DNA of 64,000 bases from Teredinibacter sp. KSP-S5-2 (lineage in GTDB: Bacteria; Pseudomonadota; Gammaproteobacteria; Pseudomonadales; Cellvibrionaceae), in assembly GCF_032773895.1 (NCBI RefSeq), contig NZ_CP120416.1:4555001-4619000 (forward strand), read 5' to 3'. Numbering within the stretch: position 1 is the first letter of the stretch; every line of letters starts with the position of its first letter. Position numbers and translations under genes: made by a program. Below are positions 18,482 through 30,893 of the stretch, one piece after another. Under the pieces are notes generated by a model, which was not told the origin of the DNA, made no database searches, and was given only the letters and a program-made list of their open reading frames with translations.

Positions 18482-18527
18482 ACTACATGTAATTTTATTG
18501 ACGGTATTACATGTAATAAACTATATT
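18482..18527 (+). promoter_or_regulatory. Promoter with twin palindromic operator for the psp/flotillin block
   Basis: A good sigma-70-like promoter: TTGACG at 18498-18503, an 18-base spacer and TATATT at 18522-18527. Two copies of a 12-base palindromic motif, ACTACATGTAAT at 18482-18493 and ATTACATGTAAT at 18506-18517, lie 24 bases apart. The second sits between -35 and -10. That layout suits repression. The first gene of the block has a ribbon-helix-helix-like N-terminus and is the obvious candidate regulator. I saw no sigma-54 promoter of the enterobacterial psp type. Confidence 0.65.
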
Positions 18528-18533
18528 TGCCCT

Positions 18534-19169
18534 ATGAAAGCAAAATCCTCAGCACATTACCAACGAGAGTATCGGAAAAGACTTCGAGAACAAGGGTTAG
18601 TGAAAAAGGAAGTCTGGATCCTTCCAGAAAATTCTGGACGGCTCGCTGAATATGAAAAGCATTTAAGGCTTCGAGGCGACACCGTCGCTTCAAAAGGAGA
18701 GATAAGCATGAGTAACAGCAAAAAAGAGAGCAGCTGGAATACAAGTAGTTTGTATGACTCTCTAAAGGAAACTGAGTTGTTTGCCAGTGGTTTGGCTGCG
18801 ATTGAACTAATAGATGGTGTCGAGCCAGCGATACATATCACAATGAAAGAATACGGCGACCTGCCTATTTTCCTGACCGTTTCGGGTGACCAGATTATTG
18901 CTGAATCCGTTCTTTGGTCTGTGTCGGAGGTAAAAGATGTTGCAGGGTTTAATGAAGCGATTTTGAGAACACACAAATACTTCCCCCTCTCCACAATTTG
19001 CCTTGATCAGATGGGCTCAAACGGTGACTACTATCAGATGTTTGGGGCGCTGAGTTCGACCTCGCTAATACAAAACGTAGTATTTGAAATTGAAGTGTTG
19101 GCAAGTAATGTTATTCAGGCGACGGAAGCTTATGGCGAGTTTCTGAACATTTCCGTTGAAGCGAGCTAA
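18534..19169 (+). CDS. RHH-like DNA-binding domain fused to DUF2170 (YjfI family)
   Basis: A 211-residue protein. Residues 1 to about 50 (with 'YQREYRKRLREQGLVKKEVWILPE') resemble ribbon-helix-helix DNA-binding proteins. The remainder resembles the DUF2170/YjfI domain, which in E. coli is a stand-alone protein encoded just before the PspA paralogue YjfJ. The ATG at 18534 sits only about seven bases after the -10 box and has no Shine-Dalgarno sequence, so the transcript may be leaderless. An internal ATG at 18708 has a strong ribosome site and would give the DUF2170 domain alone (about 153 residues). Likely role: autoregulator and PspA partner, by inference from domain and neighbours. Confidence 0.8.
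   Translation: MKAKSSAHYQREYRKRLREQGLVKKEVWILPENSGRLAEYEKHLRLRGDTVASKGEISMSNSKKESSWNTSSLYDSLKETELFASGLAAIELIDGVEPAIHITMKEYGDLPIFLTVSGDQIIAESVLWSVSEVKDVAGFNEAILRTHKYFPLSTICLDQMGSNGDYYQMFGALSSTSLIQNVVFEIEVLASNVIQATEAYGEFLNISVEAS
18694..18710 (+). promoter_or_regulatory. Internal ribosome-binding site and restart codon in the DUF2170 gene
   Basis: AAGGAGA is followed after seven bases by an in-frame ATG at 18708, beginning 'MSNSKKES'. This falls exactly between the RHH-like part and the DUF2170 part. A separate DUF2170-only product is therefore plausible. Confidence 0.5.
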
Positions 19170-19183
19170 GCAGGAGTAGACAA

Positions 19184-19867
19184 ATGAATATTTGGTCAAA
19201 AATGATGACCGCGTTACGCGGTGGGGTAAACGAAGCTGGTGAGGCAATTGTTGATAGCCAAGCCCTAAGAATCCTTGATCAAGAAATCCGGGAATCATCG
19301 GAAGAGTTGAATCAATCAAAAGATAGCCTGGCGGAAATATTAGCTCGGCAAAAAGTGGCGGAAGAAAAATGTGCGCAATTGGAACTGCAAATAAAAGAAC
19401 ATGAAGGCTATGCGATTAAAGCACTGGATAAGGGGGATGAAGGGTTAGCAAGAGAAGTCGCGGAAAAAATCGCAGATCTTGAAAACCAACATACTCAGGA
19501 ACAGGAGGCCGCAAAAGGCTTTGAACAGAGTGTGGCATCTCTTCGACAAGCTATAAAGCAAGCAGAACAAAACCTGAAGCGCATTAAACAACAGGTTGAT
19601 ACCGTTAAAGCGACAGAAAATGTGCAACGTGCCCAAGCTGCGGTGGCGGAGCGTCATAGTGGATCGCAATCCAAAATGCGAACAGCGATGGATTCGCTGG
19701 AACGTATCAAGGAAAGACAAGCATTAAAATCTGCACAAATGTCTGCAGCAAAAGAAATAGCAGAAGAGACGTCAGAAACATCACTTCAATCGAAACTTGA
19801 AAAAGCTGGAATTGCATCCAGCGGAAAAAGTGCCGACGATATACTTGATAGGTTGAAGAAAAAATAA
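19184..19867 (+). CDS. pspA: PspA/IM30 (ESCRT-III-like) membrane-stress protein
   Basis: A 227-residue, mostly coiled-coil PspA/Vipp1 family protein. Such proteins polymerise on damaged or stressed membranes and stabilise or remodel them. The N-terminal amphipathic start 'MNIWSKMMTALRGG' and the following 'ALRILDQEIRESSEEL' fit the family. Long heptad-rich helices cover about residues 25-190, and the tail ends 'SADDILDRLKKK'. It resembles the YjfJ branch more than the sigma-54-controlled PspA of E. coli, since pspB, pspC and pspF are absent. GCAGGAG stands just before the ATG, 14 bases after the DUF2170 gene. Confidence 0.92.
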   Translation: MNIWSKMMTALRGGVNEAGEAIVDSQALRILDQEIRESSEELNQSKDSLAEILARQKVAEEKCAQLELQIKEHEGYAIKALDKGDEGLAREVAEKIADLENQHTQEQEAAKGFEQSVASLRQAIKQAEQNLKRIKQQVDTVKATENVQRAQAAVAERHSGSQSKMRTAMDSLERIKERQALKSAQMSAAKEIAEETSETSLQSKLEKAGIASSGKSADDILDRLKKK

Positions 19868-19926
19868 ATGCTGTTAACAGATGTTAATTAACAACATATA
19901 AAAATCAGCAATATGGAGGGTGGGGT

Positions 19927-20616
19927 ATGTTTGCGATCTTTTTTATGGAGGATATGGATCCGTTTTATCAGAATATCTCATCCTTCCCTACCGTAATTTT
20001 TACGTTCTTTCTCGCCATCACAGTTCTCTATTGGCTGATAGCTGTATTGGGTTTTATTGATATCGATATTCTCGATTTCGACCTTCCTGAGGCTGATGGT
20101 CTTGAAATCGAAGGCGAAGGTTTTTCCAACCCGGATGTTTTAGCCGGGCTTATGTTACGCTTTGGCCTTCAGGGAGTTCCTGTAACAGTTATCATATCTT
20201 TTATCTCACTGCTTGGTTGGATATTCTCCTACTATATTGTCCACTTTTTACTTGGGTTTGTACCTGAAGGAGCCTTGCGTTTTCTGGCAGGAATCCCGGT
20301 TTTATTGTTTAGTTTATATGTGGCCGTAATGATTACAGCCGTATTGATTAAACCTCTACGTCCCTTGTTTAAAAAAGCCCAGCAACAAACTGTGAAACAT
20401 GTACTTGGACAAACCGCAATTGTTAGAACTTCGAAAGTAGACTCGGAGTTTGGCGAAGCGACCTTGGAAGATGGTGGAGCTGGTTTGATTTTGAAGGTAC
20501 GAACAACCGGGGGCGAAGAATTTGTCAAAGGTGATCGAGTGGTTTTACTGGAACATCTGAAAGACAAAAATACCTTTCGAGTTATCTCGGAAAAAGAGTT
20601 TTTAGGAAACAAATAG
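19927..20616 (+). CDS. yqiJ: YqiJ-like inner-membrane protein with C-terminal OB-fold (NfeD-related)
   Basis: A 229-residue membrane protein. One hydrophobic helix lies at about residues 18-45. Two more are at about 75-140 ('GVPVTVIISFISLLGWIFSYYIV', 'LAGIPVLLFSLYVAVMITAVLI'). A C-terminal soluble beta-rich domain at about 155-229 ('VLGQTAIVRTSKVDSEFGEATL') resembles the OB-fold of NfeD/YqiJ proteins. YqiJ is the usual partner of the flotillin YqiK, and here the flotillin gene follows 37 bases later. The ribosome site GGAGG is strong. It probably anchors or modulates the flotillin scaffold. Confidence 0.87.
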   Translation: MFAIFFMEDMDPFYQNISSFPTVIFTFFLAITVLYWLIAVLGFIDIDILDFDLPEADGLEIEGEGFSNPDVLAGLMLRFGLQGVPVTVIISFISLLGWIFSYYIVHFLLGFVPEGALRFLAGIPVLLFSLYVAVMITAVLIKPLRPLFKKAQQQTVKHVLGQTAIVRTSKVDSEFGEATLEDGGAGLILKVRTTGGEEFVKGDRVVLLEHLKDKNTFRVISEKEFLGNK

Positions 20617-20653
20617 CAAAATTAAATTTAATTAGGATATGGGGTAAACAGCT

Positions 20654-22618
20654 ATGGCTGATCTATCGGTTCTTATGCCAGTTGCAATTGGCATTGGTAT
20701 TGTTTTTATCATTCTTATGGGATTTGCTGCATTATTTAAAGCGTTCTATGTCAAGGTTGAGCAAGGGACGGCTTTAATTGTTAATGATATGTCCCCAAGG
20801 CCCAAAGTACATTTCACTGGGGCTTTGGTCTATCCCATTATCTATAAAAAGGAACTAATGAAGATCTCTTTGATTACCCTGGAGGTTGACCGAAGAGGAA
20901 AAGATGGTTTGATTTGTGCCGACAACATGCGCGCTGACATTACCGTTGCATTTTATCTGCGTGTGAATGAGACAGCTGAAGATGTGTTAAAAGTCGCCAA
21001 ATCGATAGGCGCAGATAGAGCCTCAGATAAAGGCGCAGTAAATGAACTTTTTAACGCAAAGTTTTCGGAAGCATTGAAAACGGTGGGTAAACAAATTGAG
21101 TTTGTTAAGCTGTTTGAAGATCGTTTGGAGTTTCGTGAGAAGATTATTCGAGTTATTGGTGAAGACCTAAATGGCTACGTGTTGGAAGATGTGGCGATTG
21201 ACTACCTGGAACAAACGCCAAAAGCTTCCCTGGATCCAAGTAATATCCTCGATGCTGAAGGTATTAAGAAAATTACTGAGTTAACAGCGGAACAGAATGT
21301 TCGCACCAATATTCTGGAAAGAGATGAAGAGCTGGCGATTAAAAAGAAAAATGTTGAAACGGTAGAAGCAATGTTGGAGCTTGAAAGACAACAAGCAGAT
21401 GCCGAAGCAAAGCAAGAAAGAGAAATCGCGACAATTCGGGCTAGGGAAGAAGCCGAAACTAAAAAAGTACAAGAGGAAGAGCGACTTAAAGCTGAAACGG
21501 CAACGATTCAAGCAGATCAGGACTTAGCTGTTCAAACAGAAAACCAGAAGCGCGAAATTGAAGTTGCTGAGCAAAATCGTCAGAGAGCCGTTGTTATTGA
21601 AGTGGAAAAAGTAACACGCGCGAGAGACCTGGAGATCGTTGCCAGAGAGCGTGAAGTTGAGTTACAACGAATTGAAGCAGAAAAAGCGGTTGAGATTGAG
21701 AGAAAAGAAATTGCCAATGTTATCCGCGAACGTGTTGCCGTTGACAAAACAGTTGCGATAGAAGAAGAGCGTATTAAAGAAGTAAGAGAAGTGTCCGAAG
21801 CGGACCGGGCTAAGCAGACACAAGTTCTTGCTGCAGAAGCCGAGGCTGACGAAGAGAAAGTTAAGCAAGTAAAAGCCGCAGAAGCGGAAGAGCTGTCAGC
21901 TAAACATAAGGCTGTGGAAATCACTACGCTTGCCCAGGCTAACCTGGAAGCGGCAGCCAAAGAAGCAGATGCGAAGAAAAAACTTGCGGAAGGTATTCAA
22001 GCCGAACGTGCAGCACCTGGTTTAGCGGATGCGAAAGTCCAAGAAGCCAGAGCAGATGCACTTGAAAAAGAAGGTATTGCGGAAGCGAATGTGATTAGAG
22101 CGAAAGGTCAAGCCGAAGCCGATGCTCACCTGGGTACAGGTAAGGCTGAAGCCGAAGTGATTGCTGCGAAAGGTGATTCGGAAGCGAAAGCTGCAAAAGA
22201 AATTGGTATGGCCAATGCCGATGTTACACGTGAGCACTTTAAAGCCGAGGCAGACGGCCTGGTTGATAAGTTTAATGCCATGAACAGCATGAGTGCAGAT
22301 GCTCGAGCGCATGAAGAATATCGTATGGGTCTTGAAACGGCACTGAAAGAAGCGTTGGCTTCCATCGATGCGGGTAAAGATATTGCCAGAGAAAATGCTG
22401 AAGTACTTGCAGTAGCATTACAGAAAGCGAAGATTGATATTGTGGGTGGTGAAGATCACTTCTTCAATAACTTTGCTAAATCTCTCTCTATTGGTAAAGC
22501 CGTGGATGGCCTGGCAGATAAGAGCTCAACCATATCCGCCCTTATTGATCGCGTTATTTCCGGAAAACCTATCATCCCAAACCTATCCGCTACGGATAAA
22601 GAAGAAGACAAAGCGTAA
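20654..22618 (+). CDS. yqiK: Flotillin-like SPFH protein (YqiK family)
   Basis: A 654-residue flotillin. An N-terminal membrane helix (about residues 7-30) is followed by an SPFH domain (about 35-200, 'VEQGTALIVNDMSP'). A very long charged coiled coil rich in Ala, Glu, Lys and Arg runs from about 220 to 560. Flotillins oligomerise into membrane microdomains that organise lipids and protein complexes. It is about 100 residues longer than the 553-residue E. coli YqiK. The YqiJ-YqiK pair is conserved in many bacteria; its fusion into a PspA operon with a giant ATPase is the notable point. A GC-rich hairpin follows the gene. Confidence 0.92.
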   Translation: MADLSVLMPVAIGIGIVFIILMGFAALFKAFYVKVEQGTALIVNDMSPRPKVHFTGALVYPIIYKKELMKISLITLEVDRRGKDGLICADNMRADITVAFYLRVNETAEDVLKVAKSIGADRASDKGAVNELFNAKFSEALKTVGKQIEFVKLFEDRLEFREKIIRVIGEDLNGYVLEDVAIDYLEQTPKASLDPSNILDAEGIKKITELTAEQNVRTNILERDEELAIKKKNVETVEAMLELERQQADAEAKQEREIATIRAREEAETKKVQEEERLKAETATIQADQDLAVQTENQKREIEVAEQNRQRAVVIEVEKVTRARDLEIVAREREVELQRIEAEKAVEIERKEIANVIRERVAVDKTVAIEEERIKEVREVSEADRAKQTQVLAAEAEADEEKVKQVKAAEAEELSAKHKAVEITTLAQANLEAAAKEADAKKKLAEGIQAERAAPGLADAKVQEARADALEKEGIAEANVIRAKGQAEADAHLGTGKAEAEVIAAKGDSEAKAAKEIGMANADVTREHFKAEADGLVDKFNAMNSMSADARAHEEYRMGLETALKEALASIDAGKDIARENAEVLAVALQKAKIDIVGGEDHFFNNFAKSLSIGKAVDGLADKSSTISALIDRVISGKPIIPNLSATDKEEDKA

Positions 22619-22637
22619 GTGCGAGCAAATAAAAAAA

Positions 22638-22652
22638 GGGGCCATAGGCCCC
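22638..22652 (+). terminator. Hairpin between flotillin and giant ATPase genes (attenuator-like)
   Basis: A perfect GGGGCC-ATA-GGCCCC hairpin is preceded by an A run and followed by CTTCTTATAT. It lies in the 69-base gap before the ATPase gene. It lacks a clean U tract, so it may be a partial terminator or RNA-stability element that lowers expression of the distal genes. Function inferred. Confidence 0.55.
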
Positions 22653-22687
22653 GCTTCTTATATGTGATTTTTGCGTAGGGTAGTGAT

Positions 22688-25600
22688 ATGGAACAGCGGG
22701 ATGAAACCGGTAAAGCTTCGGATGCGGTGGATAGCGCCGTTGCCGAAGGTGGTGCCTATGAGATTATTCGAAAGCGATTAGAAACTCAGGGACAAACACT
22801 TTCCAACAAAGCCAATGAGCTAAATGCGGCGCGCTTAGGCGAGTTTGGCAGCGCTGACATGGAAGTGAAAGCCAGGGTACGAGTACGAACAGAAAACAAT
22901 TGTATTGCAAGAGATATTGTTCAGGTTAGTGATTACTTGCTTTTTGGCTACAACGTTTTTCTGGGCCTTAAAAAGGAAACAAGAGTTGAAGATGTTTTTG
23001 CTCTGTTTAATTTACAAGAGCAGGACGGAAGTTTTGACATTGTTCAGGTACCTATCAGCGGCACATTCCTGTCACAAAGCGGTTTTGTTAACGATTTTGA
23101 AGAACTGTATCGCTACTACAAGCACACCAAATTAACCCAGCTTACAATTAAAGACGGAAAGCTACTGGCCGCTTTTCAAATTGGTGAGCGACCAGAAGAT
23201 ATACGGGTATTTCGTTGGTCCGTTTCTGCTGATGGAAAACAGCTTAAATATATAGATAATCGCGGCGAACGCGATATTCAACTTCCGCCAAAGTATGATT
23301 TTGAATGGATTGAAACAACGCGTGAAAATACCGTAAATGGGCGCCATGCTCACGTCAATATTCTCGATACGGTATTTGTTGAAACTATTGGTGGGGACCT
23401 TACCGTTAAGGTCGAAAATAACACGGAGGATGGTCTCGGTATCTATCGGGAGCCGGTAGAAGACAAAACCCAATCTCTGGATGATGCACACATTGCTTAT
23501 GCCGCGATTGGTGATTTAATTTTGTTACGCATTCGCCCCTATAGAGAAGAGCAATACCGTTACCTTATTTTTAACACATTGACGCAAGATGTGCTGAGAG
23601 TCGATGCAATTGGTCAGTCCTGTGTCCAATTACCGGAAGATCATGGTTTGGTTTTCCCCGGCGGGTACTACTTACAAACCGGTGAGTATAAAAAGTTTGA
23701 CGACGATGCCGCCGGCCTGATGTTTAAACGTTCTATCCGCTCTCCAAACGGAGAAGATGTTCTCTATGTTTTCTATGAACCAGTTGAAGGTGTGGTTGGT
23801 TTGTTCGCCTACAACATCATCGAGAAAAAACTTCAAAATCCAATATACGGTAACGGTTATGCCCTGGCTGAAAATGGTCAACTAGTCATTTTTTCTGCGG
23901 AAGCTGAACCCACGCGTGTGCACCCGATGCAGGTTTGGCAAACACCTTATCAAAGTGCAGAATTTGCCAGTAAAGCGCCAGCCAGTCAGACGTTTTATGG
24001 AAAAATTGGTAACGCAGAACTAGTGCGTGGTGTGTCTGATTTATACAGTATCTGTCGGATGATCAGTAATCAGTCGGTTTCATTGCGTCTTTATGAAGAA
24101 CTCAGCAAGGCCGCCAAAAAAATATTTGATGATCACTACTGGATAGGGGATACGGACACTAAAGAGATTGCCTCATTAATAAAGGAAGTAGCCGCAACTT
24201 CTGAACTGGTTATTGATGAATTTGAAAAAGTAGAAAGTATTCGCCAGCAATCGGCAAAAACAATGCTGGATGCCGAACGGGAACAGGAATCCCTAATTCA
24301 ATCGGTGCGCCCGGATAATTGGCAAACTGCCGAAGAATATGTTGAAGCCTTGGGCAGGCTACGGCGTCAACGAGGACATCTAACAACCATAAAAGATTAC
24401 CGATACATCGATTTATCTCGTGTCGAGGAATTAGAGAAACAACTACAGGATGTTGAGGAGTCTCTATCCCGGAAAACAGTTGATTTCCTGTCGGATGAAA
24501 AAGCGTTAGATCCCTATCTCGAAAAAATCGAGGTTTTAAATAAAGAAGTTGAAGAGGCAACGACTAACGCAACCTTGCAGCCTTTAATCGAATCAATTGA
24601 GCAAACAGCCTTTGGCCTGGATCTACTCTCTGAATTAATGGGAACGCTTCAAGTTGATGATGCGACGGTTAGAACGCGTATTATTGACGCGATCTCATTG
24701 GTGTATTCCAAACTTAACCAGAGTAAAGCGAACGCCAAGCACAAGCAAAAAAATCTGGGCTCGGAAGAAGCGAAAGCGCAATTCGGTGCGCAGTTTAAGT
24801 TATTTTCCCAAAGTATTACCAACGCCCTGGGCTTGGCGTCGACACCAGAGAAGTGTGACGAACAGCTCTCGCGCCTTTTAGTTCAACTCGAAGAACTGGA
24901 AAGTCAGTTTAGCGATTTCGATCAATTCCTCGCTGACATTATGGAGAAGCGCGAGGAAGTCTATGAGTCTTTTGAAAGCCATAAACAACAACTATTGGAT
25001 GAGCGTCAACGCAAGGCACAGTCTTTAAGTGATGCTGCTTCTCGCATATTGGCCAGTATTGAAAAGCGTTCGCTAAAATTTACCGCCGCAGATCAACTCA
25101 ATACCTATTTTGCCTCGGACGCGTTGGTACTGAAAATCAAAGAACTGGTCGAACAATTGCGCAGTTTGGATAGTGCAGTGAAAGCGGATGATATTGAATC
25201 ACGCTTTAAAGGCATTAAGGAACAGGCTCTACGTTCTTTAAGAGATAAAACCGATATTTTTGAACAGGGCGGCAATGTAATTAAATTGGGTCCTCGACAT
25301 AAATTCTCGGTAAACACTCAGGAATTGGATCTGACTATTATTCCCCGTGATGGCGAATTGAATCTCCATTTAACAGGGACAACTTTTTATGAACCGATTA
25401 AAGATGACGAGTTGCAAAGCACACGCGAATACTGGGATATATCTCTGGAATCAGAAACGCCCAAAGTGTACCGAGCTGAATACCTTGCCTCTTTAATCAT
25501 TGAGTCCGCAGAAAAGCAGCGTGATGGACTTTCCATTGATGCTTTGAATCAGGGGCTATTAGATGAAGCAATACTGAGCAAACTGGTAAAGGAATTTGCG

Positions 25601-27979
25601 GCTCCTCGATACAAAGAGGGTTATGAAAAAGGCGTCCACGATCACGATGCCGTTTTATTATTAAATGAATTACTACCCGCGATAGATCGAGCGGATCTAC
25701 TTCGGTTTGATCCGTTAAGTCGCGGTCTTGCGCAGATATTCTGGGCGAACATAAAAAGCTTGGCGAAAAACAAACCGCAACAAGCTGAGCGCGCGTCATT
25801 GTCATTTACCACCTGGCCCGAACGAGCGCAATCTGCAGCACAGATGCAATCATTTTTCTCCAGCACAGAAGCCGTAGAATTACTCGCTGATGAGGTCAGG
25901 CATGCACTTACCGACTTTATTCAGCAACATCCAATACCGGTGACGGAACTGGATATTCGTCGTGCTGCTGATTACCTCGTTGCAGAGCTTAGTCGTGAAC
26001 GTATTGAGTTCATTGGTAGCAAATATGCTACGCAACTTGTTGAAGAGCTTAAGCGCTCGATGGATGACGGTAGTTGGCGTCGCTACCAAATGGCATTGGA
26101 AAAAATGGTTGGCTGGCCAGCAGAGCGTTGGAATTTATCAGTTGCATGGTTGCAGGCTTTGACGGAAAAGAAAAACTTAGGGAACCTGGCTCGCTACATT
26201 CCTGAAGCAGTTGCTCTTATCAATGCGGATGAACGTCTGGAAAGGCGCTTTACTGAAGTTGACCTTGAGTTAACTATTGACGGCCTTTTAGGGGATCACC
26301 CGACTATTGAAAATCGTCAATTACGTTTTTCTCTGGATTCCTATTTGCTACGTATGGAGAATCACCGTTTTGAAGTGGTGCCTGCATACCACCGCTATTT
26401 AAAGCTGCGCCAGGAAGCGATCAGTAACAATCGTGAAGCATTACGTCTGGAGGAGTTTAAACCTCGTCCGCTCAGTTCCTTTGTTCGGAACCGTTTGATT
26501 AACGAATCTTATCTTCCCCTTATTGGTGACAACCTCGCGAAACAAATGGGAACCATCGGTGAGAACAAGCGTACAGATCTCATGGGCTTGTTGATGATGA
26601 TTTCTCCGCCCGGCTACGGTAAAACGACATTAATGGAGTATGTTGCCAATCGGTTGGGATTAATTTTTATGAAAATTAATTGCCCATCTTTGGGTCATGA
26701 TGTGCTGTCCCTTGATCCCGAGCAGGCTCCTAATGCAACCGCCAGGCAAGAGTTGGATAAGTTAAACCTGGCTCTGGAAATGGGTAACAATGTTATGTTG
26801 TATCTGGATGATATCCAGCATACTCACCCGGAATTCTTACAGAAATTTATTTCCCTATGTGATGGTACTCGTCGAATTGAGGGTGTATGGAAAGGCAAGA
26901 CTAAAACCTACGACATGCGTGGGCGTAAGTTCTGTGTCGTCATGGCCGGTAACCCTTACACCGAATCAGGAGAGGCGTTCAAAATTCCCGATATGTTAGC
27001 CAACCGGGCGGACATCTATAATCTCGGTGATATTCTCGGTGGTATGGATGAACAGTTTGCGCTGAGTTACATTGAAAATGCGCTTACCTCCAACCCCGTA
27101 CTTGCGCCATTGGCAGTCCGGGAAATGTCGGATGTCTATAAGTTAATTGATATGGCCAAAGGGGCAAACATTGCGACCACGGATTTAAGTTATGCCTACA
27201 GTGGTGCGGAAATAAATGAAATTACTGAAATCCTGAAGAAAATGTTTGTTGTGCAGGATGTAATCCTAAAAATAAATCAACAGTATATTGCTTCGGCTGC
27301 ACAAAACGATAAATACCGAACTGAGCCTCCGTTCAAGTTACAGGGTAGTTACCGTAACATGAATAAAATGACGGAAAAAATCTCGGCAGTCATGAATGAG
27401 CAGGAGCTAATGCAGATGATTGCCGACCACTACGTTGGTGAGGCACAGCTGTTAACAACTGGTGCGGAAGACAACCTGCTTAAACTGGCTGAACTCAGAG
27501 GCAATATGAGCGAAGAGCAGAAGGCTAGATGGGACCAGATTAAAAAAGACTTCCTGCGCAACAAGGCAATGGGTGGAGACGATGCAGATACGGGTGGCAA
27601 AGTCGTTGCGCAATTGGCCGACCTCGTTAGTGGTGTTCAGTCCCTGTCGGATATAGCCGCACATGCTGCAGCCTCGCCCTCGAAAGAAGGTGATAAAACT
27701 GCCGCTGCGTTGATGGTAATGATCGACAGACTCTCCGAAGTTCTGCAGAAGTCCAAACCTTCTATTAAAGTGGTGAACGAACCTGTTCCTGGAATCGACA
27801 AAATCCTCACGGTTTTAGCAGAAACTATTGAGCACAGTATTTTTCCATTGGTACGCAGTATGGATAAAAAACTGGAGATTGATTTAAGAACACACGAAAA
27901 AATGAAAGATATCTCCCGCCAATTACGAACTCTGGAAGCACAGGTGATTGGTAAAACGGATAAGGGCTCTGCAAGCTAG
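22688..27979 (+). CDS. Giant AAA+ ATPase, 'DNA repair ATPase' type (DUF3686-like N-terminus)
   Basis: A 1763-residue protein. An N-terminal beta-rich region (about 50-430) resembles the DUF3686 module of proteins annotated as DNA repair ATPases. A helical coiled-coil region spans about 480-880. The AAA+ module has Walker A 'PPGYGKTTLMEY' (about 1306-1317) and Walker B 'VMLYLDDIQ' (about 1367-1375), then 'VVMAGNPYTESG' (sensor region). A helical tail follows. No signal peptide or membrane helix is evident, so it is cytosolic. The database name is not proof of a DNA role: beside PspA and flotillin it could remodel membrane scaffolds. The function is uncertain; ATPase activity is well supported. 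Confidence 0.85.
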   Translation: MEQRDETGKASDAVDSAVAEGGAYEIIRKRLETQGQTLSNKANELNAARLGEFGSADMEVKARVRVRTENNCIARDIVQVSDYLLFGYNVFLGLKKETRVEDVFALFNLQEQDGSFDIVQVPISGTFLSQSGFVNDFEELYRYYKHTKLTQLTIKDGKLLAAFQIGERPEDIRVFRWSVSADGKQLKYIDNRGERDIQLPPKYDFEWIETTRENTVNGRHAHVNILDTVFVETIGGDLTVKVENNTEDGLGIYREPVEDKTQSLDDAHIAYAAIGDLILLRIRPYREEQYRYLIFNTLTQDVLRVDAIGQSCVQLPEDHGLVFPGGYYLQTGEYKKFDDDAAGLMFKRSIRSPNGEDVLYVFYEPVEGVVGLFAYNIIEKKLQNPIYGNGYALAENGQLVIFSAEAEPTRVHPMQVWQTPYQSAEFASKAPASQTFYGKIGNAELVRGVSDLYSICRMISNQSVSLRLYEELSKAAKKIFDDHYWIGDTDTKEIASLIKEVAATSELVIDEFEKVESIRQQSAKTMLDAEREQESLIQSVRPDNWQTAEEYVEALGRLRRQRGHLTTIKDYRYIDLSRVEELEKQLQDVEESLSRKTVDFLSDEKALDPYLEKIEVLNKEVEEATTNATLQPLIESIEQTAFGLDLLSELMGTLQVDDATVRTRIIDAISLVYSKLNQSKANAKHKQKNLGSEEAKAQFGAQFKLFSQSITNALGLASTPEKCDEQLSRLLVQLEELESQFSDFDQFLADIMEKREEVYESFESHKQQLLDERQRKAQSLSDAASRILASIEKRSLKFTAADQLNTYFASDALVLKIKELVEQLRSLDSAVKADDIESRFKGIKEQALRSLRDKTDIFEQGGNVIKLGPRHKFSVNTQELDLTIIPRDGELNLHLTGTTFYEPIKDDELQSTREYWDISLESETPKVYRAEYLASLIIESAEKQRDGLSIDALNQGLLDEAILSKLVKEFAAPRYKEGYEKGVHDHDAVLLLNELLPAIDRADLLRFDPLSRGLAQIFWANIKSLAKNKPQQAERASLSFTTWPERAQSAAQMQSFFSSTEAVELLADEVRHALTDFIQQHPIPVTELDIRRAADYLVAELSRERIEFIGSKYATQLVEELKRSMDDGSWRRYQMALEKMVGWPAERWNLSVAWLQALTEKKNLGNLARYIPEAVALINADERLERRFTEVDLELTIDGLLGDHPTIENRQLRFSLDSYLLRMENHRFEVVPAYHRYLKLRQEAISNNREALRLEEFKPRPLSSFVRNRLINESYLPLIGDNLAKQMGTIGENKRTDLMGLLMMISPPGYGKTTLMEYVANRLGLIFMKINCPSLGHDVLSLDPEQAPNATARQELDKLNLALEMGNNVMLYLDDIQHTHPEFLQKFISLCDGTRRIEGVWKGKTKTYDMRGRKFCVVMAGNPYTESGEAFKIPDMLANRADIYNLGDILGGMDEQFALSYIENALTSNPVLAPLAVREMSDVYKLIDMAKGANIATTDLSYAYSGAEINEITEILKKMFVVQDVILKINQQYIASAAQNDKYRTEPPFKLQGSYRNMNKMTEKISAVMNEQELMQMIADHYVGEAQLLTTGAEDNLLKLAELRGNMSEEQKARWDQIKKDFLRNKAMGGDDADTGGKVVAQLADLVSGVQSLSDIAAHAAASPSKEGDKTAAALMVMIDRLSEVLQKSKPSIKVVNEPVPGIDKILTVLAETIEHSIFPLVRSMDKKLEIDLRTHEKMKDISRQLRTLEAQVIGKTDKGSAS

Positions 27980-27988
27980 TTTTTAGTG

Positions 27989-28558
27989 ATGGTGGGGTCT
28001 TTTTGGTTACGTATTAAAATAATTATTGGCCTGGTGTGTGTTTTGGTTGGTGTGCATATTGCCAATGTAATGCTCGAAGGGCAGCTGCAGTATTTTGGTA
28101 TTCTTCCTCGTCACTGGGGAACCTGGTATCACATATTTACGTCGCCTTTTATTCATCAAAGCTATGGCCATCTGATAAACAACATAATAGGTCTGAGTAT
28201 CTTCAGCGCAATATGTCTATTGCGTCCCGTACGTTATTTTGTGATAGCCAGTTTTTTCATCATTGTGGTAGCGGGTGTTTTGGTTTGGCTGTTTGGAAGG
28301 CCCGCCATTCATATAGGAGCAAGCGGCTGGATTTTTGGTTTATGGAGCTTATCGATAATGACAGCCTGGTTTGATCGAAGCTTCAAAAATCTTTGTATTG
28401 CTGTATTTGTTGTCTTTCTTTACGGTGGAATGATTTACGGCATTTTGCCAACCCGACCAGGGGTTTCTTACGAAGCCCATTTGTTTGGTTGTGTGGCAGG
28501 TATTCTTTTTGCGGCAATGGCCGCTAAATCTCCTCGTTTTAAAAGGGCACTGCGGTGA
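27989..28558 (+). CDS. Rhomboid-family intramembrane serine protease
   Basis: A 189-residue membrane protein, essentially the six-helix rhomboid core. The segment 'FIHQSYGHLINN' gives the conserved His/Asn region, 'GASGWIFG' carries the catalytic Ser (about residue 112) and 'EAHLFGCVAG' the catalytic His (about 163). A GTG immediately upstream (27986) is an alternative start. It begins nine bases after the ATPase stop and overlaps the next gene by four bases, so the genes are translationally coupled. A rhomboid beside PspA/flotillin could cleave membrane proteins during stress. Its substrate is unknown. Confidence 0.9.
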   Translation: MVGSFWLRIKIIIGLVCVLVGVHIANVMLEGQLQYFGILPRHWGTWYHIFTSPFIHQSYGHLINNIIGLSIFSAICLLRPVRYFVIASFFIIVVAGVLVWLFGRPAIHIGASGWIFGLWSLSIMTAWFDRSFKNLCIAVFVVFLYGGMIYGILPTRPGVSYEAHLFGCVAGILFAAMAAKSPRFKRALR

Positions 28559-29394
28559 TAAGTGTTATAAAAAAAATTCTGGGGAAATTTTTTCCCCCAA
28601 AGCCTAAGGCCAGTGATGTTGTATGGCAGCAACGCTGGAGCGATATTCTGCAGAAAAAAGTTGCATTTTATCGAGTACTGAATGCGCAGGATAAAGCGCT
28701 ATTTCACCAACGTGTACTGTTGTTCTTGGAAACTACGGCGATTGAAGCAGGGCAGTTTGAAGTGACAGAAGAGGATGCATTGCTGGTCGCAGCAAGTGCA
28801 ATTATCCCCGTTTGGGGGTTTCCTAATTGGCACTACTTTAATCTTAAAGCCGTGTACCTTTTACCCTCCTCATTTAATGATCAATTTGAGTGTGGTAAGC
28901 CTGACTCTAATATTTCCGGTATGGTGGGTACGGGTCCATTTACGGGGAAAATGGCATTGAGTCGTCCTCATCTATATGAAGGATTTGAAAACAGCCGTGA
29001 TAAACAAAATGTTGGTATTCATGAATTTGTGCACTTGGTCGATATGGCCGATGGTGATTGTGATGGCTTTCCTGAGCGACTGAAGGAATTTCAGTTTTCG
29101 ATTCCATGGTTTGATCTGGTTGAGAAAAAGATTGAAGAAATTGACTCCAACAAAAGCAATATCCGGGATTACGGCGCAACCAATAGAGCGGAATTTCTGG
29201 CTGTTGCTTCAGAATATTTCTTTGAAAGGCCGAGAATGCTTCAGGAAAAACACCCGAAGCTTTTTGCAGCTTTAACTGAATTCTATAAGCAGGATGTTAT
29301 GGCCATTGCTGAAGATGTCCGAGTTAGAAAGAACAGCCCCTGTCCGTGCGGAAGTGGGAAAAAATATAAACGTTGTTGTTTACCAAAAGAGTAA
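28555..29394 (+). CDS. MtfA-like (M90) zinc metallopeptidase with C-terminal SEC-C motif
   Basis: A 279-residue protein. The core resembles the MtfA/M90 peptidases: the zinc motif 'HEFVH' (HExxH, about residues 157-161) is followed by 'LVDMADGDCDG', and a more distal 'NRAEFLAVASEYFFE' supplies the third acidic ligand. The last 20 residues contain the SEC-C zinc motif 'CPCGSGKKYKRCC', also found at the end of SecA. It starts with GTG overlapping the rhomboid gene. MtfA itself binds the Mlc repressor in E. coli, but here the fused SEC-C tail suggests a protein- or ribosome-binding role. Activity is predicted; the target is unknown. Confidence 0.85.
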   Translation: MISVIKKILGKFFPPKPKASDVVWQQRWSDILQKKVAFYRVLNAQDKALFHQRVLLFLETTAIEAGQFEVTEEDALLVAASAIIPVWGFPNWHYFNLKAVYLLPSSFNDQFECGKPDSNISGMVGTGPFTGKMALSRPHLYEGFENSRDKQNVGIHEFVHLVDMADGDCDGFPERLKEFQFSIPWFDLVEKKIEEIDSNKSNIRDYGATNRAEFLAVASEYFFERPRMLQEKHPKLFAALTEFYKQDVMAIAEDVRVRKNSPCPCGSGKKYKRCCLPKE

Positions 29395-29409
29395 AAGTAA
29401 GGAGTCAGT

Positions 29410-29943
29410 ATGGATTGTCCACAGTGTAAAGGTTACCAGCTTGAACCCAGTGAATTGGAAGTTGGGCTAATCGCTTGTCGTTGTGCAAAATGTGAAGGTG
29501 CATTGCTGCCCCTAATGAATTATCGATACTGGAATGACAACAACTTGAATGTTGAGTCAGAGCCTTCAACCACCACAATGGTAGAAGACAACACCCAGGC
29601 AAAGCTCTGTCCAAAATGCCAGCGCATGATGACAAAGTTCAAGATAAGTGCTGAATCAGGAAATAAAATAGAACTATGTACCGGTTGTGATGAAGCCTGG
29701 TTAGATAAAGGCGAGTGGCAATTGCTTAAATCCCTTGATGTACAAAATAAGCTACCCAGTATTTTTACTGACGCTTGGCAAAGAAATATTCGACTTAAAC
29801 AACAGGAGAAAAGCTTAAATAGCCACTATGAGGAAAAGCTGGGTACAGAAGCTTTTGAAAAGATATGCAACTTCAAAGAGTGGATGGAAAAGCAACCGGA
29901 TAGAGGCGAGATTATTCAATACCTAATTACTAAAGTGCAGTAA
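29410..29943 (+). CDS. Double zinc-ribbon (zf-TFIIB-like) protein
   Basis: A 177-residue soluble protein with two CxxC...CxxC modules. One is at the N-terminus ('MDCPQCKG' ... 'CRCAKCEGALL', about residues 2-32) and one at about 73-100 ('LCPKCQRMM' ... 'ELCTGCDEAWLDKGEW'). The latter matches the zf-TFIIB pattern in which a C-x-x-C pair is followed by W-x-D-x-G-E. The rest is charged helix. It follows the peptidase gene by 15 bases with an AAGGAG ribosome site. Such proteins may sense metal or bind nucleic acid or protein; nothing more specific is visible. Confidence 0.8.
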   Translation: MDCPQCKGYQLEPSELEVGLIACRCAKCEGALLPLMNYRYWNDNNLNVESEPSTTTMVEDNTQAKLCPKCQRMMTKFKISAESGNKIELCTGCDEAWLDKGEWQLLKSLDVQNKLPSIFTDAWQRNIRLKQQEKSLNSHYEEKLGTEAFEKICNFKEWMEKQPDRGEIIQYLITKVQ

Positions 29944-29974
29944 TTGTTTTAATAAGTCAAAAAGGAACAACACA

Positions 29975-30211
29975 GTGAGCGAAAATAGAGATTATCTAGA
30001 AATGTCCTTTCACTCGATTAATTGCTTTGCTGACGGCGAGCTTTGCGTTGATGAACTGAACCAAATTGTCGATATCGCATTAAAGGACGGTGTGGTAGAC
30101 GAGAATGAAAAACGCATATTGAGAAACATTATTGGTCGGTTGAACGAAGATGAACTTCAAGGTGATTTACTGGACAGGGTCAATCAGTTACGAACAGACT
30201 TAAAGCTCTAA
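29975..30211 (+). CDS. Small acidic TerB-like helical protein
   Basis: A 78-residue protein starting with GTG, with AAAAGGAACAA before it. The sequence 'ALKDGVVDENEKRILRNIIGRL' resembles the metal-binding helical repeat of TerB/DjlA proteins ('DG.i...E...l'), but only a single repeat is present. TerB proteins occur in stress systems tied to membranes and metal. It is the last gene of the block that starts at 18534. The assignment is tentative because of the small size. Confidence 0.6.
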   Translation: MSENRDYLEMSFHSINCFADGELCVDELNQIVDIALKDGVVDENEKRILRNIIGRLNEDELQGDLLDRVNQLRTDLKL

Positions 30212-30290: not shown

Positions 30291-30893
30291 CTATCGACAC
30301 AAAGCCAAAGGCACCGAAGAAAGGCCAAATCCCTCGGATAGATCAATAGCGTGAATGGATTTCACTTTTTCTATCTGTTTTTGAATTGGATCGATCAGAG
30401 ATGTCGGAAGCAATGTGTATCTGTCTTTCTGTCCTTTTCCCCGAAAAACAAAAAGTGATTTATTGTCAAAGTCGATGTCTTTAATTCTGAGTCTCAGCGC
30501 CTCATTCACTCTTAGTCCGCAACCATAAAGGATCGCAGTAATAAGCCAATACTTACCTGATAAGCAAGAAAGGACTCCATTGACTTCCGAGTGAGATAAC
30601 ACCGTGGGTAAATTTCTTGGGCGTTTCGCATACCCATAATTTAATCCTTCAATCTCCTGGTTTATAACATGCCGATACATGAACACGAGGGCACATAGGG
30701 CTTGGTTTTGAGTGGCGGCTAAATAGTTAAAAAACCGTTCAATTTCTGCATTCCCCATATCTTTAGGATGCTTCTTGTTGTGGAAATGAATAAAAAATCG
30801 AACCCAGTAAAGATACGTTTTTTCGGTTTTCAAACTGTAATGGCGGGTACGTAGTTCAGTTCGAATAAGCTCAAGAAAGGGAGAGGGTTTCAT
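30291..30893 (-). pseudogene. intI: Broken integron integrase (IntI)
   Basis: The reading frame matches the N-terminal and middle part of integron tyrosine recombinases: 'LRTRHYSLKTEKTYLYWVRFFIHFH', 'HPKDMG', 'TQNQAL', then the catalytic Arg in 'GCGLRVNEALRLRIKDIDF', and 'KGQKDRYTLLP'. About eight residues that normally precede 'TQNQAL' are missing. The frame stops after 'LALCR', and the decayed continuation ('PSVRLSWSYY') is still readable beyond the stop to about 30240. The C-terminal His/Arg/Tyr catalytic residues are gone. It cannot be active, so cassette movement would need an integrase in trans. Orientation, divergent from the cassettes, is typical of integrons. Confidence 0.88.

What the first reader, a model, noticed from the sequence alone, without database searches (positions are those of the whole stretch)
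18534..30211. Nine-gene PspA-flotillin-giant ATPase-double protease operon
Seen: nine same-strand genes with short gaps or overlaps encode an RHH-DUF2170 protein, PspA, YqiJ-like and YqiK-like proteins, a 1763-residue AAA+ ATPase, a rhomboid, an HExxH/SEC-C peptidase, a zinc-ribbon protein and a TerB-like protein. Known: PspA polymerises on stressed membranes, flotillins scaffold membrane domains, and YjfI-YjfJ and YqiJ-YqiK are conserved pairs. Inference: this is an integrated membrane-repair or envelope-defence machine in which the ATPase acts on the PspA/flotillin scaffold and the two proteases clear damaged proteins. A role against phage is possible but nothing here proves it.
Basis: partly seen in the sequence, partly recalled or inferred. 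Interest (0 to 1): 0.85.

Follow-up and report, generated by a model that had tools for sequence, protein, structure and literature searches.

The report
Self-regulated bac-type membrane-stress operon with proteases
Nine neighbouring bacterial genes form a variant of a known but little-understood membrane-stress operon (bac/PspA type); new here are a conserved DNA switch by which its first protein probably shuts the operon off, and the repeated company of a rhomboid membrane protease.

Summary
The nine genes are real and correctly placed. Genes 1-5 (DUF2170, PspA, YqiJ-like, YqiK-like, propeller/coiled-coil/AAA+ giant) are the published P. aeruginosa bac operon (bacA-E) and the CesT/Tir-PspA-band7-AAA+ class of Ravi et al. 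2024, so the core is not new. The families travel together far beyond close relatives: of 93 distinct ATPase loci with adequate flanks, YqiJ and YqiK homologues lie near in 92, PspA 64, DUF2170 62, rhomboid 32, Zn-ribbon 31, PLD 24, TerB-like 22, M90 peptidase only 2. The "double protease" set is a local variant; rhomboid and Zn-ribbon are recurrent accessories.

New: the ~45-residue N-domain of the DUF2170 protein, outside the solved BacA fragment, goes with a pair of TTACATGTAA-type palindromes in the promoter (58 of 60 distinct upstreams; shuffles 0.12; 0 of 23 for DUF2170 proteins without the domain), nearly unique genome-wide. In a second Pseudomonadaceae clade the palindrome changes with the domain, and those operons run DUF2170-PspA(-rhomboid). 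The -10 box ends 6-7 nt before the ATG, predicting a leaderless mRNA. I read this as an autorepressor that ties PspA status to transcription of a membrane-repair/proteostasis module. DNA binding, polarity of the signal and function in this organism are untested.

The parts
18483..18492 (.). distal operator, CTACATGTAA
   Evidence: coordinates; conserved pair in 58 of 60 distinct upstreams
18498..18503 (+). predicted -35, TTGACG
18507..18516 (.). proximal operator, TTACATGTAA, inside the -35/-10 spacer
18522..18527 (+). predicted -10, TATATT, ending 6 nt before the ATG (leaderless mRNA predicted)
18534..19169 (+). gene A: BacA-type protein, N-terminal putative DNA-binding domain (residues ~1-46) + CesT-like DUF2170 domain; the upstream TTG start at 18498 would run through the promoter
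   Evidence: PF09938 170.7 bits; NCBIfam BacA NF050185 302.5 vs cut-off 300; AF2 model matches PDB 8q8o
19184..19867 (+). gene B: PspA/IM30 (ESCRT-III-like)
   Evidence: PF04012 158.4 bits
19927..20616 (+). gene C: YqiJ-like membrane protein
   Evidence: orthologue L091 hits YqiJ_N 23.4 vs 23; near the ATPase in 92 of 93 loci
20654..22618 (+). gene D: YqiK-like SPFH/flotillin-type protein
   Evidence: orthologue L156 hits Band_7 38.9 vs 23.6; alignment A4 50-78% identity to the window protein
22638..22652 (+). hairpin GGGGCC-ATA-GGCCCC in the D-E gap (terminator-like on both strands in the scan)
22688..27979 (+). gene E: 1763-aa ATPase, N-terminal beta-rich (propeller) DUF3686, DUF7902, AAA+ with Walker A GYGKTT and Walker-B-like LYLDD
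   Evidence: motifs invariant in 15 of 15 aligned; AF2 of residues 1-600
27986..28558 (+). gene F: rhomboid, GASG serine motif and downstream histidine
   Evidence: PF01694 68.7 vs 22.6; GxSG plus H motif in 22 of 22 F proteins checked
28555..29394 (+). gene G: M90 (MtfA-like) HExxH metallopeptidase with C-terminal SEC-C
   Evidence: PF06167 195.9, SEC-C 34.1; MtfA structures matched
29410..29943 (+). gene H: Zn-ribbon protein
   Evidence: PF13453 33.5; near the ATPase in 31 of 93 loci
29975..30211 (+). gene I: small TerB-like/EF-hand-like protein, last gene
   Evidence: sub-threshold PF05099; near the ATPase in 22 of 93 loci

Best explanation
This is a bac-type Psp operon: a PspA (ESCRT-III-like) membrane-binding protein, an SPFH/flotillin-type scaffold with its YqiJ-like partner, and a large propeller-coiled-coil-AAA+ ATPase, preceded by a regulator and followed by an accessory cassette (rhomboid, M90 peptidase, Zn-ribbon, TerB-like). 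Proposed mechanism: (1) the N-domain of the DUF2170 protein binds two palindromes that flank the -35 and fill the -35/-10 spacer, and keeps the sigma70-like promoter off; (2) its CesT-like domain binds PspA, so the state of PspA decides whether the repressor stays on DNA; (3) on membrane damage the operon is derepressed from a leaderless transcript; (4) PspA coats the damaged membrane, YqiJ/YqiK organise the site, the ATPase remodels or recycles the polymer, and the rhomboid (with M90 here, PLD in many relatives) removes damaged or orphan membrane components. Shown here by comparison: gene content, linkage, operator-domain association and covariation, promoter layout. Published in P. aeruginosa: co-transcription of six genes, rise of BacB-F in a bacA mutant, predicted BacA-BacB contact. 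Inferred: direct DNA binding, signal polarity, what the ATPase and the proteases act on.
For: Core and co-occurrence. Same order A-B-C-D-E in a genome whose BacA is 99% identical to PDB 8q8o, there followed by PLD. Operator: at least two ACATGT cores within 150 bp in 58 of 60 distinct domain-bearing upstreams, shuffles mean 0.12, max 2 in 200; 10 of 12 new ones in an order-wide sample, 12 of 12 with at least one; 27 of 27 distinct in Pseudomonadaceae, one of them (L209) the same genome as L173. Controls: pair in 0 of 8 and 0 of 15 DUF2170 proteins lacking the domain; 0 of 91 upstream of gene C. Near-unique: in 33 genomes scanned whole (of 39 ATPase-bearing family genomes) the twin site was found in 28, with only three places away from the operon. 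Covariation in a second clade: 16 of 16 with one domain type have TCACGCGTGA, 0 of 20 others do, 18 of those 20 have T[CT]ACATGT[AG]A. Layout: proximal site 24-28 nt before ATG in 54 of 60; of these 54, TAnnnT at the expected place in 47 and a -10-to-ATG gap of 6-7 nt in 49. Literature: RT-PCR operon and 6- to 13.5-fold rise of BacB-F in the bacA mutant (PMC10948618 Results); BacA-BacB AF2 interaction probability 0.981 (PMC13092808 passage); PA3728-PA3732 up in phage infection (PMC12041424 passage).
Against: No binding or expression experiment on this organism. The N-domain is not a recognised RHH; AF2 gives helix-extended-helix at pLDDT 58-77 per block, monomer only. PMC10948618 proposes a sigma54 site for P. 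aeruginosa bacA, and a GG-N10-GC match lies near the L202 operators, so the sigma70 reading may not be the only promoter. Stress response is not uniform: PA3729 and PA3732 fall at elevated temperature (PMC4957987) and PA3730/PA3731 move in opposite directions with copper (PMC6444534). The PspA-BacA link is a prediction plus an unpublished remark. Related genomes are not independent, so k-of-n counts overstate the number of evolutionary events. Exceptions: L066 has no ACATGT core (it has an inverted TTACAGGTAA/TTACCTGTAA pair); L236 and L242 show no perfect site; six of 60 have another layout.
Confidence: 0.66

Rival explanations
1. An ordinary bac/Psp operon with unrelated housekeeping genes downstream: rhomboid-to-TerB genes are neighbours by chance or by terminator read-through.
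For: The last four genes are absent from many loci: 34 of 93 have neither F, P, G, H nor I near (19 CDE+, 15 ABCDE+, not counting rarer core types); P. aeruginosa-like L272 has only PLD. M90 is near in only 2.
Against: Rhomboid near in 32, Zn-ribbon in 31, PLD in 24, TerB-like in 22 of 93 loci, mostly same strand; none of rhomboid, Zn-ribbon, TerB-like in 563,780 far bases. Rhomboid follows PspA on the same strand in 26 of 40 second-clade DUF2170-PspA operons. Gaps here are -4 to +31 bp from E to I.
Confidence: 0.15
2. The palindrome pair is bound by another regulator, and the N-domain of the DUF2170 protein does something else (for example RNA or protein binding).
For: No direct binding data; the N-domain has no fold assignment and only sub-threshold MazE-like similarity.
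Against: Site and domain come and go together (58 of 60 against 0 of 8 and 0 of 15), the site sits at the domain's own gene and almost nowhere else in 33 genomes, and it changes with the domain (16 of 16 against 0 of 20). bacA disruption raises the operon's products (PMC10948618).
Confidence: 0.17
3. A dedicated anti-phage defence system.
For: PA3728-PA3732 were up in all phage-infected samples of one study (PMC12041424); distribution is patchy (39 of 144 family genomes).
Against: PADLOC matches only coiled-coil regions of PspA and the SEC-C tail of the M90 protein, none for the ATPase or rhomboid; the published bacA/bacB phenotypes are biofilm, swarming and rhamnolipid (PMC10948618); Psp proteins respond to envelope insult generally (established knowledge).
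Confidence: 0.08

Closest known systems
P. aeruginosa bac operon bacABCDEF (PA3732-PA3728 and next gene; PMC10948618, PMC2587700 listing only)
   Same: Same first five genes in the same order; gene A passes the NCBIfam BacA cut-off, 302.5 vs 300; same twin operator and -10 spacing (L202).
   Different: Sixth gene there is a PLD-family protein; here rhomboid, M90, Zn-ribbon and TerB-like genes follow. The paper proposes sigma54 and, in the passages seen, has no operator, no N-domain and no 'ribbon' or 'DNA-binding' wording; the crystallised part is 139 residues.
CesT/Tir-PspA operons with band-7/flotillin, YqiJ/YuaF and beta-propeller AAA+ (Ravi et al. 2024, PMC11237479, passages only)
   Same: Same core and the PLD accessory are described.
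   Different: 'rhomboid', 'TerB', 'MtfA' do not occur in its main text and RHH occurs once, for a different operon group; supplements not seen. No operator named in the passages seen.
Classical pspF-pspABC
   Same: PspA family protein at the membrane.
   Different: No PspF/PspB/PspC here. The same genome has a second PspA elsewhere beside ORFs that look like PspF, PspB and PspC by eye. Regulation here looks like a repressor, not PspF/sigma54 activation.
Mitochondrial SPY complex: SLP2 (SPFH), PARL (rhomboid), YME1L (AAA+ metalloprotease) (PMC6210556 passage)
   Same: Same kinds of parts: SPFH scaffold, rhomboid, AAA+ ATPase and, in two loci, a separate zinc metallopeptidase. Works-like comparison only.
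   Different: The AAA+ here is an unrelated architecture without a fused protease; PspA and propeller have no counterpart; no complex shown.
Bacterial rhomboid quality control of orphan membrane proteins (GlpG/Rhom7, PMC7232013 passages)
   Same: Suggests what the rhomboid may do.
   Different: 'PspA' does not occur in that text; no operon link.

Membership tests
BacA / bac operon | gene A above NCBIfam NF050185 cut-off | tested here: met
   302.5 vs 300 bits
BacA / bac operon | gene order bacA-B-C-D-E | tested here: met
   L272 against the window
BacA / bac operon | sixth gene bacF (PLD-like) | tested here: not met
   no PLD hit near in the window; M90 occupies the slot
BacA / bac operon | co-transcription and BacA-dependent repression | not testable with these tools
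   published for P. aeruginosa only
Classical Psp (pspFABC) | PspA equivalog TIGR02977 | tested here: not met
   20 vs 242.95 bits, though PF04012 is met
Classical Psp (pspFABC) | PspF, PspB, PspC adjacent | tested here: not met
   none of these families reported for the genes scanned
SPFH / flotillin | Band_7 domain in gene D | tested here: inconclusive
   no hit in the window protein; one of five orthologues scanned above cut-off; FloT NF058507 15.9 vs 700
Ribbon-helix-helix regulator | recognisable RHH domain in gene A | tested here: inconclusive
   no RHH hit; sub-threshold MazE-like in 6 of 6; AF2 helix-extended-helix
Rhomboid protease | PF01694 and Ser/His catalytic motifs | tested here: met
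   68.7 vs 22.6; GxSG and H motif in 22 of 22; rhombosortase TIGR03902 not met, 37.5 vs 84
M90 peptidase (MtfA family) | PF06167 and HExxH | tested here: met
   195.9 vs 26.2; HExxH in 2 of 2; MtfA equivalog NF011939 not met, 50.2 vs 400
TerB | PF05099 above cut-off in gene I | tested here: not met
   15.9 vs 24.4
Known anti-phage systems (PADLOC) | match covering a system's core protein | tested here: not met
SPY-like complex (works like) | physical assembly of SPFH, rhomboid and AAA+ proteins | not testable with these tools
   only genetic linkage shown

The most novel reading that the evidence does not exclude
BacA-type proteins are one-component Psp sensors: a CesT-like domain reads the state of PspA and a fused small DNA-binding domain of a new kind controls a leaderless, twin-operator promoter, with an operator code that evolves with the domain. 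The operon they govern builds a bacterial counterpart of the mitochondrial SPY assembly, an SPFH scaffold with rhomboid, AAA+ ATPase and interchangeable hydrolase (PLD or metallopeptidase), coupled to an ESCRT-III-like PspA coat for membrane repair and protein clearance.
Probability: 0.3. Interest if true: 0.8.

Novelty: new variant of a known kind. Interest (0 to 1): 0.58.

Why it matters
Psp proteins are widespread, but how PspA systems without PspF are switched is open. The operator/N-domain pairing gives a directly testable answer for a large set of proteobacterial operons, including one linked to P. aeruginosa biofilm. The repeated PspA-rhomboid linkage, in two operon types, suggests that intramembrane proteolysis is part of PspA-based membrane repair, and the PLD/M90 swap points to an interchangeable effector slot.

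Tried and rejected
Anti-phage island: PADLOC gave only coiled-coil and SEC-C matches; not adopted. 'Two-protease machine' as a general design: rejected, M90 is next to the ATPase in 2 of 93 loci and 2 of 39 ATPase-bearing family genomes. 'RHH': not confirmed. TerB-PLD fusion: the first ~90 residues of PLD proteins against the TerB-like profile gave hhalign probability 33%, controls 0.1-1.7%; suggestive only. First operator scan of the own genome found nothing because my pattern demanded a T where the window has C; a mended pattern found it once. My first automatic -10 search was greedy and gave mixed gaps; a fixed-offset version was used, which is a choice made after seeing the sequences. L066 first looked like operator-domain covariation, but L183 and L185 carry the same ACAGGT/ACCTGT variant with ordinary domains, so I do not count it. 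Sub-threshold matches (for example Pfam ATLF to the M90 protein, 15.3 vs 27.4) were not pursued. PDB sequence searches with ATPase and YqiK alignments found nothing. Foldseek of ATPase residues 1-600 finds beta-propeller entries at E down to 8e-6 but TM no higher than 0.24 by query among the rows shown, so the propeller rests mainly on Ravi et al. and on the strand pattern. Rows dropped before counts: one search dropped 8 identical upstreams, L067 (domain frame broken in that assembly; one search shows ACATGT cores 142-189 nt upstream), L133 and L108; one search merged loci with identical ATPase stretches and used 93 of 117; L121's TerB-like hit is a doubtful overlapping ORF.
Full report
What is there. 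Nine same-strand genes fill 18534-30211 with gaps of -4 to +69 bp. In order: DUF2170 (A), PspA (B), YqiJ-like (C), YqiK-like SPFH (D), a 1763-residue DUF3686/DUF7902/AAA+ ATPase (E), rhomboid (F), M90 peptidase with SEC-C (G), Zn-ribbon (H), small TerB-like (I). gyrB lies upstream and a convergent, truncated integron integrase downstream. The 5.03-Mb genome has a second PspA elsewhere, beside ORFs that look like PspF, PspB and PspC by eye.

The core is known. Ravi et al. 2024 (passages) describe CesT/Tir(DUF2170)-PspA operons with band-7/flotillin, YqiJ/YuaF and a beta-propeller/coiled-coil AAA+, sometimes with a PLD-family enzyme. The P. aeruginosa bac cluster is the same thing: gene A passes the NCBIfam BacA cut-off, and a genome whose BacA is 99% identical to PDB 8q8o has A-B-C-D-E followed by PLD. 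In P. aeruginosa six bac genes are co-transcribed and BacB-F rise 6- to 13.5-fold in a bacA mutant (PMC10948618); PA3728-PA3732 rose in all phage-infected samples of one study (PMC12041424 passage). Not all published responses fit a general stress operon: PA3729 and PA3732 fall at elevated temperature, and PA3730 and PA3731 move in opposite directions with copper. PA3728 is listed as mutated in three cystic-fibrosis studies (PMC8190622 passage).

Do the families travel together? DUF3686 occurs in 10 of 369 class genomes and 39 of 144 family genomes, 17 of 32 genera. After merging identical ATPases, 117 loci remained, 93 with at least 5 kb upstream and 3 kb downstream. Near the ATPase: C 92, D 92, B 64, A 62, F 32 (27 downstream on the same strand), H 31, PLD 24, I 22, G 2. 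In 563,780 far bases of the same loci A was found in 2 loci, B, PLD and G in 1 each, F, H and I in none. The profiles were trained on 47 of these loci plus the window, and the loci are phylogenetically clustered. M90 is present in 94 of 143 family genomes but beside the ATPase only in the window's genome and G483. In several Cellvibrio-type loci PLD sits exactly where M90 sits here, between rhomboid and Zn-ribbon.

The regulator and its operator. Gene A begins with about 45 residues (KSSAHYQREYRKRLREQGLVKKEVWILPEN...) that are more conserved than most of the DUF2170 part and lie outside the solved fragment (8q8o matches window residues 67-205; 139 residues crystallised). Upstream of genes with this domain lies a pair, sometimes three or more, of TTACATGTAA-like palindromes. 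At least two ACATGT cores within 150 bp occur in 58 of 60 distinct upstreams (shuffles: mean 0.12, maximum 2 in 200); one core in 59. New samples agreed: 10 of 12 with two, 12 of 12 with one, and 27 of 27 in Pseudomonadaceae (L209 there is the same genome as L173). DUF2170 proteins without the domain have a pair in 0 of 8 and 0 of 15, and gene C upstreams in 0 of 91. In 33 whole genomes the twin site occurs in 28; three places lie away from the operon, with no shared gene content seen. Among 293 genomes of the order it occurs in 15, at gene A in eight of them.

The palindrome follows the domain. Pseudomonadaceae carry a second DUF2170 clade. Of 40 such loci read, PspA follows in 40 and a rhomboid on the same strand in 26. 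Thirty-six have a domain my pattern recognises: 16 of 16 of the KQMR[AG]GL...KHETWVLPEN type have TCACGCGTGA (13 as a pair); of the other 20, none does and 18 have T[CT]ACATGT[AG]A. The search there was limited to this palindrome shape, and close relatives mean few independent events.

Promoter layout. In 54 of the 60 the proximal site begins 24-28 nt before the ATG. There, a TAnnnT box sits 4-6 nt after the site in 47, and it ends 6-7 nt before the ATG in 49 of 54, with TTGAC-like -35 boxes 16-18 nt upstream. The operator thus fills the spacer, and the transcript should start at or next to the ATG. In the window: sites 18483-18492 and 18507-18516, -35 at 18498, -10 at 18522, ATG at 18534. PMC10948618 proposes a sigma54 site instead; a GG-N10-GC match lies near the operators of L202, so both may exist.

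Structure. AF2 of gene A (31 sequences, mean pLDDT 82.8) matches 8q8o over the CesT part (TM by target 0.94-0.96); the N-domain is helix-extended-helix at lower confidence and had no match of its own among the rows shown. Pfam sees only sub-threshold MazE-like similarity. The ATPase's residues 1-600 model as beta-rich (mean pLDDT 78.1) with weak matches to propeller proteins. Walker A GYGKTT and LYLDD are invariant in 15 aligned ATPases.

Mechanism proposed. BacA-type protein represses its own operon through its N-domain and senses PspA through its CesT-like domain; the BacA-BacB contact is predicted at 0.981 in PMC13092808 (passage). Whether PspA acts as co-repressor or pulls BacA off DNA is open. 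Once made, PspA coats damaged membrane, YqiJ/YqiK organise it, the ATPase remodels it, and rhomboid plus M90 or PLD clear damaged components. The parts list resembles the mitochondrial SPY complex, SLP2-PARL-YME1L (PMC6210556 passage), as a works-like comparison. 'Rhomboid' is absent from the Ravi main text, and five papers hold both 'rhomboid' and 'phage shock protein' (of these only PMC7232013 was opened, where 'PspA' does not occur). Searches for DUF3686 (0 papers), DUF2170 (3) and TTACATGTAA (18, of which 15 listed, none with a bacterial Psp title) showed no report of the operator.

Noticed in passing
window 30291-30893 (-): Truncated integron integrase, 200 aa covering positions 1-202 of 315 of TIGR02249 (206.3 vs cut-off 265), directly after the operon.
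   Followed up: partly
window 22638-22652: Strong GGGGCC-ATA-GGCCCC hairpin between the YqiK-like and ATPase genes, a possible attenuator or processing site.
   Followed up: no
L001 (G000:C1:4769641-4773291): Second PspA in the same genome, with neighbours that look like PspF, PspB and PspC by eye: two PspA systems in one cell.
   Followed up: partly
L232-L271: Second DUF2170 clade in Pseudomonadaceae forming DUF2170-PspA operons, 26 of 40 with a rhomboid after PspA.
   Followed up: yes
L087, L088, L043: A mechanosensitive-channel-like gene (PF00924 21.3 vs 20.2 in L087) follows the TerB-like gene; L043 also has a trypsin-like protease and a protein with weak TY-Chap1 similarity before the Zn-ribbon gene.
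   Followed up: partly
ATPase residues 1371-1375: The Walker-B-like motif is LYLDD, not the usual DE, invariant in 15 aligned ATPases; effect on hydrolysis unknown (the DE expectation is recalled).
   Followed up: no
L054: Divergent arrangement with C-D-E on one strand and DUF2170-PspA plus Zn-ribbon and rhomboid genes on the other, linking the same families in another layout.
   Followed up: no
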